This document shows positions 13,159-44,505 of a stretch of DNA of 64,000 nucleotides, one piece after another. The first letter of the stretch is position 1, and the number at the start of each line of letters is the position of its first letter. The DNA comes from Alicyclobacillus shizuokensis NBRC 103103 (lineage in GTDB: Bacteria; Bacillota; Bacilli; Alicyclobacillales; Alicyclobacillaceae): positions 1 to 64,000 of the forward strand of contig NZ_BCQV01000014.1 in the NCBI RefSeq assembly GCF_001552255.1. The letters run 5' to 3'. The translations under genes and the position numbers were made by a program. The notes beneath the pieces were generated by a model that ran no database searches, was not told where the DNA came from, and was given only the letters and a program-made list of their open reading frames with translations.

Positions 13159-13298
13159 ATCGACGAGGAGAGGGCGCCTAGCCCCCGTCCTCTCACACCA
13201 CCGTACGTGCGGATCCGCATACGGCGATTCACGAAACGCCACGAAGTGTCAGCTATCTGACCTGAAGACTGCCTAGATATCGCCCATGCCGGGCGCAC
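13159..13298 (-). mobile_element. Deleted group IIC intron remnant behind tRNA-Pro
   Basis: On the minus strand the element starts with GTGCGCCCGGCATGGGCG, the 5' end seen in group IIC introns, and ends with a domain V-like hairpin (CGCCGTATGCGG...CGCACGTACGGTGG) and a domain VI-like stem (GGGGGCTAGGCGCCC) finishing in CGAT. Only about 140 bp remain; nearly all of domains I-IV is missing. Its last 90 bases differ at only a few positions from the longer copy at 43854-44313. It sits 7 bases past the T run of the tRNA-Pro terminator, the usual target position of this intron class. Ends are inferred by comparing the two copies. Confidence 0.7.
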
Positions 13299-13335: not shown

Positions 13336-13412
13336 TGGTCGGAATGCCGGGATTTGAACCCGGGACCTCTACCTCCCCAAGGTAGCGCGCTACCAGGCTG
13401 CGCCACATCCCG
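13336..13412 (-). tRNA. tRNA-Pro(GGG)
   Basis: A full cloverleaf on the minus strand: acceptor CGGGATG pairs with CATTCCG, the anticodon stem CTACC/GGTAG holds the loop TTGGGGA with anticodon GGG, the T arm reads GGTTCAAATC, and the CCA end is encoded. It has its own promoter and terminator. Confidence 0.95.
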
Positions 13413-43853: not shown

Positions 43854-44313
43854 ATCGAGTAGGAGGGGGCGCCTAGCCCCCATCCTCTCACACCACCGTA
43901 CGTGCGGGTCCGCATACGGCGGTTCATGAAACTCCACGAAGTGTAAGGTATCTCACCTGAAGACTGCGCAGCCCCGGTTGCTCAATGTACGCTTTATCCA
44001 TGGCTTGGTTCAGCATCCTCGCCATGAACCACGGCCCTTTGTGTGAGGTGATAAGAACGGCCCCTTTCCGCTCATGCACCCGCCGCATCTATTGCCACAG
44101 CCCTTGGCGACTTCGGACTTCGTTGTGTTTGGGCAACTCGTCCGACTGTGACAGCCTCGAATGCGATTCGTGTGCCTCGGGTCGAGAGTTTGCCTTCAGC
44201 TTTCTTCAGATTCCACCTCACGATGGACACCCTTGCTCTTGGCTAGTGGTAGATATGTCTCCAATCCCCGTTCGGGACTTTCACCCTATAGGGACCGCCC
44301 ATGCCGGGCGCAC
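43854..44313 (-). mobile_element. ORF-less group IIC intron
   Basis: On the minus strand the 460-bp element starts GTGCGCCCGGCATGGGCG and carries domain I-type segments known from bacterial introns, such as GTGAAAGTCCCGAACGGGG, CTAGCCAAGAGCAAGGGTG and GTGAGGTGGAATCTGAAG. It ends with a domain V hairpin (about 43892-43923, ACCGCCGTATGCGG with CGCACGTACGGTGG) and a domain VI stem finishing in CGAT. There is no reverse transcriptase gene. It sits 7 bases after the hairpin of the terminator at 44319-44343, as IIC introns do. The size is about that of a complete IIC ribozyme. Splicing competence is not known; ends come from comparison with 13159-13298. Confidence 0.75.
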
Positions 44314-44343
44314 AAAGCGTGCAGGCGCCAACGGCGCCTGCAC
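44314..44343 (-). terminator. Perfect terminator hairpin, intron target
   Basis: GTGCAGGCGCC and GGCGCCTGCAC are exact inverted repeats around a 3-base loop, followed on the minus strand by GCTTT and then directly by the intron. The intron has cut this terminator from whatever followed it. Confidence 0.8.
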
Positions 44344-44505
44344 CTACCACAGGATCTTGATTCCATATTTTCCGCTGGGAGTGCGAAACACGGCTACATA
44401 CTTCGGCGCCTTTTGCAGGACGCCTTCGGCATCGCGAATGCGTGCCGCGAGACAATCCGCCTGGAACCGGGTATCAAATATTTTCATGTAGTACACCCAG
44501 GCCAA
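44344..44505 (-). CDS. Small protein with VFRTxxGxYGI motif (2)
   Basis: This 53-residue protein starts with TTG at 44505, 5 bases after GGAGGGAG. It reads AWVYYMKIFDTRFQADC, a helix, and VAVFRTPSGKYGIKIL. The plan matches the 57-residue protein at 39622-39795: aromatic pair near residue 4, a helix, and the VFRT..GxYGI ending. The TAG stop touches the terminator hairpin. The function is unknown. It lies 18 bases downstream of resE but on the same strand, so it may be the last gene of the resDE transcript. Confidence 0.65.
   Translation of the reverse strand: MAWVYYMKIFDTRFQADCLAARIRDAEGVLQKAPKYVAVFRTPSGKYGIKILW

What the first reader, a model, noticed from the sequence alone, without database searches (positions are those of the whole stretch)
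43854..44313. ORF-less group IIC intron inserted behind a perfect terminator hairpin
The element has the GTGCG 5' end, domain I-like conserved segments, a domain V hairpin and a domain VI stem, yet no reverse transcriptase. At 460 bp it is close to the size of a full IIC ribozyme. It sits directly after an 11-bp perfect terminator hairpin plus TTT, the known target of class IIC introns. It may depend on a maturase encoded elsewhere.
Basis: partly seen in the sequence, partly recalled or inferred. Interest (0 to 1): 0.65.

Follow-up and report, generated by a model that had tools for sequence, protein, structure and literature searches.

The report
Decayed remnant of a self-splicing intron
A bacterial jumping intron landed behind a gene's stop signal and then lost three quarters of its length, including its enzyme gene and part of its own RNA catalytic core, so it is most likely a dead leftover and not a compact working intron.

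Summary
In detail: window 43854-44313, minus strand, is a group IIC intron copy with both ends, with Rfam hits for D1 (RF02001, 124.9 bits) and DV/DVI (RF00029, 50.1 bits), 5 nt past an 11-bp terminator hairpin; the site is empty in a congener. The same genome carries a sibling (contig C65, 1881 nt, 94-95% identical, same 3' end) with an open GsI-IIC-type reverse transcriptase. Against it the window copy has one 1421-nt internal deletion that removes most of the RT plus domain II, J2/3 (the AGC strand of the catalytic triplex) and domain III; about the last 41 RT codons remain. So it is an internally deleted copy, not a complete ORF-less ribozyme. Pattern searches found the deletion junction only here (not in 58 other genomes of the order, GTDB species contigs or IMG/VR). 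A second, 140-nt remnant with both ends sits at 13159-13298, and decayed copies with other breakpoints occur in relatives. Best reading: retrotransposition, then decay; splicing probably lost. Ordinary. Relatives do hold ORF-less IIC introns of about 650 nt that keep all domains.

The parts
43854..44313 (-). Internally deleted group IIC intron, 460 nt, 5' end at 44313 (GTGCG), 3' end at 43854
   Evidence: Rfam hits; alignment to the 1881-nt sibling on C65; empty site in G002
44319..44343 (-). 11-bp perfect terminator hairpin, the insertion target; 44314-44318 is GCTTT
   Evidence: hairpin also present in the empty allele of G002
44344..44487 (-). 47-codon open frame ending directly before the hairpin
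   Evidence: read by eye; its end is kept in G002
44056..44227 (-). Domain I segment matching RF02001
44050..44051 (-). Deletion junction (exact to a few nt): 1421 nt of the sibling (D2, J2/3, D3, D4 with most of the RT) absent here
   Evidence: motifs absent
43924..44050 (-). Remnant of the RT C-terminus (about 41 codons; 33 of the last 37 residues identical to the C65 RT) and stop codon
43854..43924 (-). Domain V and domain VI, intact
   Evidence: (RF00029)
13159..13298 (-). Second remnant of the same kind: 18 nt of the 5' end, 8 nt of unclear origin, then the last 114 nt of the intron, behind a tRNA gene and a terminator hairpin

Best explanation
A full-length, RT-encoding group IIC intron retrotransposed into the T run of the intrinsic terminator that ends the small frame at 44344-44487, after the lineage split from its congener G002, whose site is empty. 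A single 1421-nt deletion then removed domain II, J2/3, domain III, the 5' part of domain IV and all but about the last 41 codons of the RT. Left are the 5' end and domain I, domains V and VI, and the 3' end. Without the J2/3 strand of the catalytic triplex and without domain III the RNA should no longer splice or reverse splice at a useful rate, and a maturase in trans cannot replace missing RNA. The copy is tolerated because it lies outside genes behind a terminator, so nothing selects for its splicing. Shown here: family, ends, target, empty site, the missing segment, the junction found only here. Inferred: the order of insertion and deletion, the timing relative to G002, and the loss of catalysis. 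The confidence covers the dead-remnant reading; the second rival is a timing variant inside it.
For: Rfam D1 and DV/DVI hits. Sibling C65:3939-5819 with open RT, same 3' end, one clean 1421-nt gap. Sibling RT: TIGR04416 E 3.8e-135, GsI-IIC RT 6ar1 E 2.5e-185. The missing segment holds two conserved helical domains (12 sequences; 19 of 44 pairs have at least one sequence changed on both sides with the pair kept) and GTCAGCAGA, identical in 12 of 12. Its AGC falls on J2/3 287-289 in O. iheyensis numbering (letters from memory, against residue numbers in a passage of PMC3669008). These motifs are absent from the element. Empty site in G002. Junction pattern: 1 of 59 genomes of the order, the window's own, at up to 3 mismatches; 0 exact hits in GTDB species contigs and in IMG/VR. 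The 140-nt remnant in the same window has no D1 and cannot have inserted in that form by reverse splicing. Decayed copies with other breakpoints in G001, G011, G015, G019. A review states that the majority of bacterial group II copies are truncated or inactivated (passages of PMC4424553).
Against: No splicing test. D1 shows no excess of private substitutions among 15 copies (6, against 7, 6 and 5 in G028, G038, G010), so the sequence gives no sign of relaxed constraint; one of the six, the G of GTGCG, is shared with C46, G050 and the 140-nt remnant, which were not in that count. Five nt (TGGTA) of the G002 allele have no counterpart 3' of the intron. From recall, yeast aI5-gamma without D2, D3, D4 and D6 still reacted at the 5' junction in vitro, so residual 5' cleavage is possible.
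Confidence: 0.87

Rival explanations
1. Non-autonomous ORF-less IIC intron that is spliced and mobilised in trans by the RT of the C65 sibling, like the ORF-less introns of Thermosynechococcus.
For: Both ends, D5 and D6 are kept and the target is a perfect terminator hairpin; an open group IIC RT lies in the same genome.
Against: D2, J2/3 and D3 are gone, whereas the Thermosynechococcus ORF-less introns have their deletions in DIV and share one deletion in 17 copies (passages of PMC2882425). Here the junction was found once.
Confidence: 0.05
2. Timing variant of the remnant reading: the deletion arose during insertion. The RT jumped on the intron RNA while copying it, so a shortened copy with both ends was laid down in one step.
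For: Both ends are kept in this copy and in the 140-nt copy; by eye the junction shares about 1 nt, so no repeat-driven deletion is indicated.
Against: Nothing here tells it from a later deletion; for the decayed copies in G001 and G019 no 3' end was found in the fetched stretch of about 2.6-2.7 kb, as expected of deletion in place.
Confidence: 0.12
3. A minimal complete ORF-less IIC ribozyme, as first proposed, close to the size of a natural ribozyme core.
For: Length 460 nt; D1, D5 and D6 present.
Against: The ORF-less IIC intron of G050 (653 nt) keeps D2, J2/3 and D3, and that of G009 (649 nt) aligns with it over its whole length; the window element keeps RT codons instead.
Confidence: 0.02

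Closest known systems
GsI-IIC-type group IIC introns (bacterial class C)
   Same: D1 family, DV/DVI, terminator target; the sibling's RT best matches GsI-IIC RT (6ar1) among solved structures
   Different: the window copy lacks D2, J2/3, D3, most of D4 and about 429 of 470 RT codons
TeI3n fragment of Thermosynechococcus elongatus (PMC2882425, passage seen)
   Same: a group II copy with a large internal deletion, from DId(5') to DIVa1, which the authors class as a fragment
   Different: other intron family and host; other breakpoints
ORF-less TeI3 introns of T. elongatus (PMC2882425, passages)
   Same: ORF deletion derivatives of an RT intron, with remnants of the ORF
   Different: their deletions lie in DIV, 17 copies share one deletion, and they are mobile with IEPs acting in trans
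About 650-nt ORF-less IIC introns of relatives G050 and G009
   Same: IIC introns without RT; the G050 copy lies behind a terminator hairpin
   Different: all ribozyme domains kept; 88% identical over full length between genomes of two families of the order

Membership tests
Group IIC intron (by descent) | Class C domain I and DV/DVI | tested here: met
   RF02001 124.9 bits, RF00029 50.1 bits
Group IIC intron (by descent) | Insertion after an intrinsic terminator hairpin | tested here: met
   11-bp hairpin, 0 of 300 shuffles; empty site in G002
Group IIC intron (by descent) | Related full intron with class C RT | tested here: met
   C65 sibling; GsI-IIC RT best solved match
Group IIC intron (by descent) | EBS1/IBS1 pairing with the flanking exon | not tested
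   not worked out
Functional group II ribozyme | J2/3 strand of the catalytic triplex and D3 present | tested here: not met
   GTCAGCAG, CATAGTA and GGAAGGGC present in C65 and G050, absent in the element
Functional group II ribozyme | Splicing in vivo or in vitro | not testable with these tools
   needs RNA
ORF-less mobile (trans-driven) intron | Same deletion form at several insertion sites | tested here: not met
   1 copy in its own genome, 0 of 58 other genomes of the order at up to 3 mismatches; 0 exact hits in GTDB species contigs and IMG/VR
ORF-less mobile (trans-driven) intron | RT that could act in trans present in the genome | tested here: met
   C65 RT open, 470 codons from ATG; its activity is not tested

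The most novel reading that the evidence does not exclude
The D1-D5-D6 remnant is still excised or mobilised because the missing D2-J2/3-D3 part is supplied in trans by the RNA of another IIC copy together with its maturase, as in fragmented trans-splicing organelle introns.
Probability: 0.02. Interest if true: 0.65.

Novelty: new member of a known kind. Interest (0 to 1): 0.12.

Why it matters
It matters little by itself: another inactivated bacterial group II copy. As a caution it is useful. A D1 hit plus a DV hit at ribozyme-like spacing can look like a compact ORF-less intron although D2, J2/3 and D3 are gone. A published pipeline, for example, calls an intron ORF-less when a domain I-IV hit lies within 1,300 bases of domain V without an RT (passage of PMC8919778), which this element would satisfy. 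Surveys for ORF-less IIC ribozymes should check for J2/3 and D3. The comparison also turned up full-domain ORF-less IIC introns in relatives.

Tried and rejected
Excess private substitutions as a sign of decay: tested on 15 copies over D1 and not found (6 for the window copy, 7 and 6 for two others). Codon changes in the last 37 codons of the RT remnant against C65: 2 synonymous, 4 non-synonymous, too few to conclude. Pfam and NCBIfam on the 43-residue remnant: no hits; its identity rests on the alignment with the C65 RT (34 of 43 residues). A 38-base pattern of the O. iheyensis intron to fetch the reference: no hit. Literature searches gave reviews and the Thermosynechococcus paper; of the papers cited I saw only passages (PMC3669008, PMC4424553, PMC8919778, PMC2882425). 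The yeast aI5-gamma deletion result is recalled, not read. HYER ribozymes (group IIC introns without ORF with DNA-cleaving activity) are recalled too; one search listed papers that hold the word, none was read. EBS/IBS pairing was not worked out.

Limits of the searches: the decayed copies in relatives were picked because their match spans looked broken, so they are not a random sample; of the seven stretches fetched from relatives, one (G042) ends at a contig end and one (G050) proved to be the full-domain ORF-less intron. In one search only up to 10 candidates were scored in most relatives and the list was cut, so copy counts there are lower bounds; the lists were cut too. The collections may leave out the window's own genome, so they had no positive control; one search did (it found the window copy). 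A junction differing by more than 3 bases would have been missed.

Full report
What is there. On the minus strand, window 44313 down to 43854, lies a 460-nt element with a GTGCG 5' end. It has a class C domain I segment (RF02001, 124.9 bits, gathering 32) and a DV/DVI segment (RF00029, 50.1 bits, gathering 40). It follows a perfect 11-bp hairpin and GCTTT; 0 of 300 shuffles of the 50-nt flank give an equal stem. The hairpin stands directly behind the stop codon of a 47-codon frame (read by eye). The host genome (3.63 Mb, 148 contigs, unnamed) has 4 RF02001 and 6 RF00029 matches in all.

It is an insertion. In the congener G002 the locus is 91-94% identical on both sides and has no element: the terminator's stem and T run go straight on into intergenic sequence. 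Five nt of the G002 allele (TGGTA) have no counterpart 3' of the intron, which may be an unrelated indel. In the more distant congener G001 the region between the two flanking matches is about 100 nt and holds no match to the element.

It is a deletion derivative. The same genome holds on contig C65 a 1881-nt intron with the same 3' end and a nearly equal 5' end (GTACG instead of GTGCG), 95% identical to the first 264 nt and 94% to the last 197 nt of the element. Its RT frame is open (470 codons from ATG). It matches TIGR04416 group II RT/maturase (E 3.8e-135) and Pfam RVT_1 and GIIM; among solved structures it is nearest to GsI-IIC RT, 6ar1 (E 2.5e-185). Aligned to it, the window copy shows one 1421-nt gap, at about element position 263/264; four mismatches in the first 16 bases to the right leave the breakpoint uncertain by a few nt. 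Right of the gap about 41 RT codons remain, and 33 of the last 37 residues are identical.

What the deletion took. Twelve copies that still hold this region were aligned: eleven of the RT-bearing type (C23 is a partial copy) and the ORF-less G050 copy. The region just right of the left breakpoint folds into two conserved helical domains with compensatory changes (19 of 44 pairs have at least one sequence changed on both sides with the pair kept). Between them is the stretch GTCAGCAGA, identical in 12 of 12. I read these as D2, J2/3 and D3. These are the residues that PMC3669008 names as J2/3, catalytic triad and D5 bulge of the catalytic triple helix (passage). GTCAGCAG, CATAGTA and GGAAGGGC are present in C65 and G050 and absent from the window element, while the D5 sequence is kept. 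So the element lacks part of the active site itself.

Junction found once. It occurs once in its own genome and in none of the 58 other genomes of the order searched with up to 3 mismatches. It gave no exact match (4 free positions) in the GTDB species contigs or in IMG/VR; these two collections may leave out the window's own genome. A mobile short form would be expected at several sites, as for the 17 ORF-less T. elongatus introns that share one deletion in DIV (PMC2882425, passages).

Decay is seen elsewhere too. The same window holds a second remnant at 13159-13298 (minus): 18 nt of the 5' end, 8 nt of unclear origin and the last 114 nt, behind a tRNA gene and its terminator; the site is empty in G002. 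Having no D1, it cannot have inserted in this form by reverse splicing. Its junction was found in 1 of 59 genomes of the order, the window's own. Copies with yet other breakpoints occur in G015 (568 nt), G001, G019 and G011 (chosen because they looked broken). A review states that the majority of bacterial copies are truncated or inactivated and that IIC introns insert at terminators (PMC4424553, passages).

Mechanism. Most likely a full-length copy retrotransposed into the terminator and lost 1421 nt afterwards; by eye the junction shares about 1 nt, so no repeat-driven event is indicated. An RT jump during insertion is a less likely alternative that I cannot exclude. Splicing is probably lost because J2/3 and D3 are gone; this is inferred. 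Against it, D1 shows no excess of private changes (6, against up to 7 in other copies of 15), so the sequence gives no sign of relaxed constraint; the loss may be recent. A possible maturase in trans (the C65 RT) is present, but the missing pieces are RNA.

Verdict. A correct sighting of a IIC intron at its usual target, but a defective copy of a known kind and not a compact ORF-less ribozyme.

Noticed in passing
window 13159-13298 (-): 140-nt IIC remnant with both ends, no D1, behind a tRNA gene (13339-13412) and a terminator; the site is empty in G002.
   Followed up: yes
L047 434-1086 (-) (G050:C49:6933-7585) and L072 627-1275 (-) (G009:C155:7026-7674): About 650-nt ORF-less IIC intron; the G050 copy has D1, D2, J2/3, D3, D5 and D6, and the G009 copy is 88% identical over full length, in another family of the order. 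5' ends at 98% identity lie at contig ends in 5 places of G019, which suggests several copies there. A candidate trans-driven or HYER-like (name recalled) intron.
   Followed up: partly
L073 506-6151 (G021:C1:4788505-4794150): Three IIC introns of 1882 nt, each with an open RT frame, lie head to tail and exactly abutting, 99.7-99.8% identical: the 3' end of one is the 5' flank of the next.
   Followed up: partly
L013 (G000:C46:1-603, -): IIC copy whose match to C65 ends at C65 position 304, within D2; by eye, without a search, the following sequence looks like an IS3-type transposase frame.
   Followed up: no
L054 (G000:C38:1-5000): Two RT hits and two DV hits within about 3 kb, of introns with little DNA similarity to C65.
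   Followed up: no
L009 1440-3320 (G000:C65) and L020 (G015:C43): The first 315 nt of the C65 intron (all that L020 holds) are identical in a genome of another genus, pointing to recent transfer.
   Followed up: no
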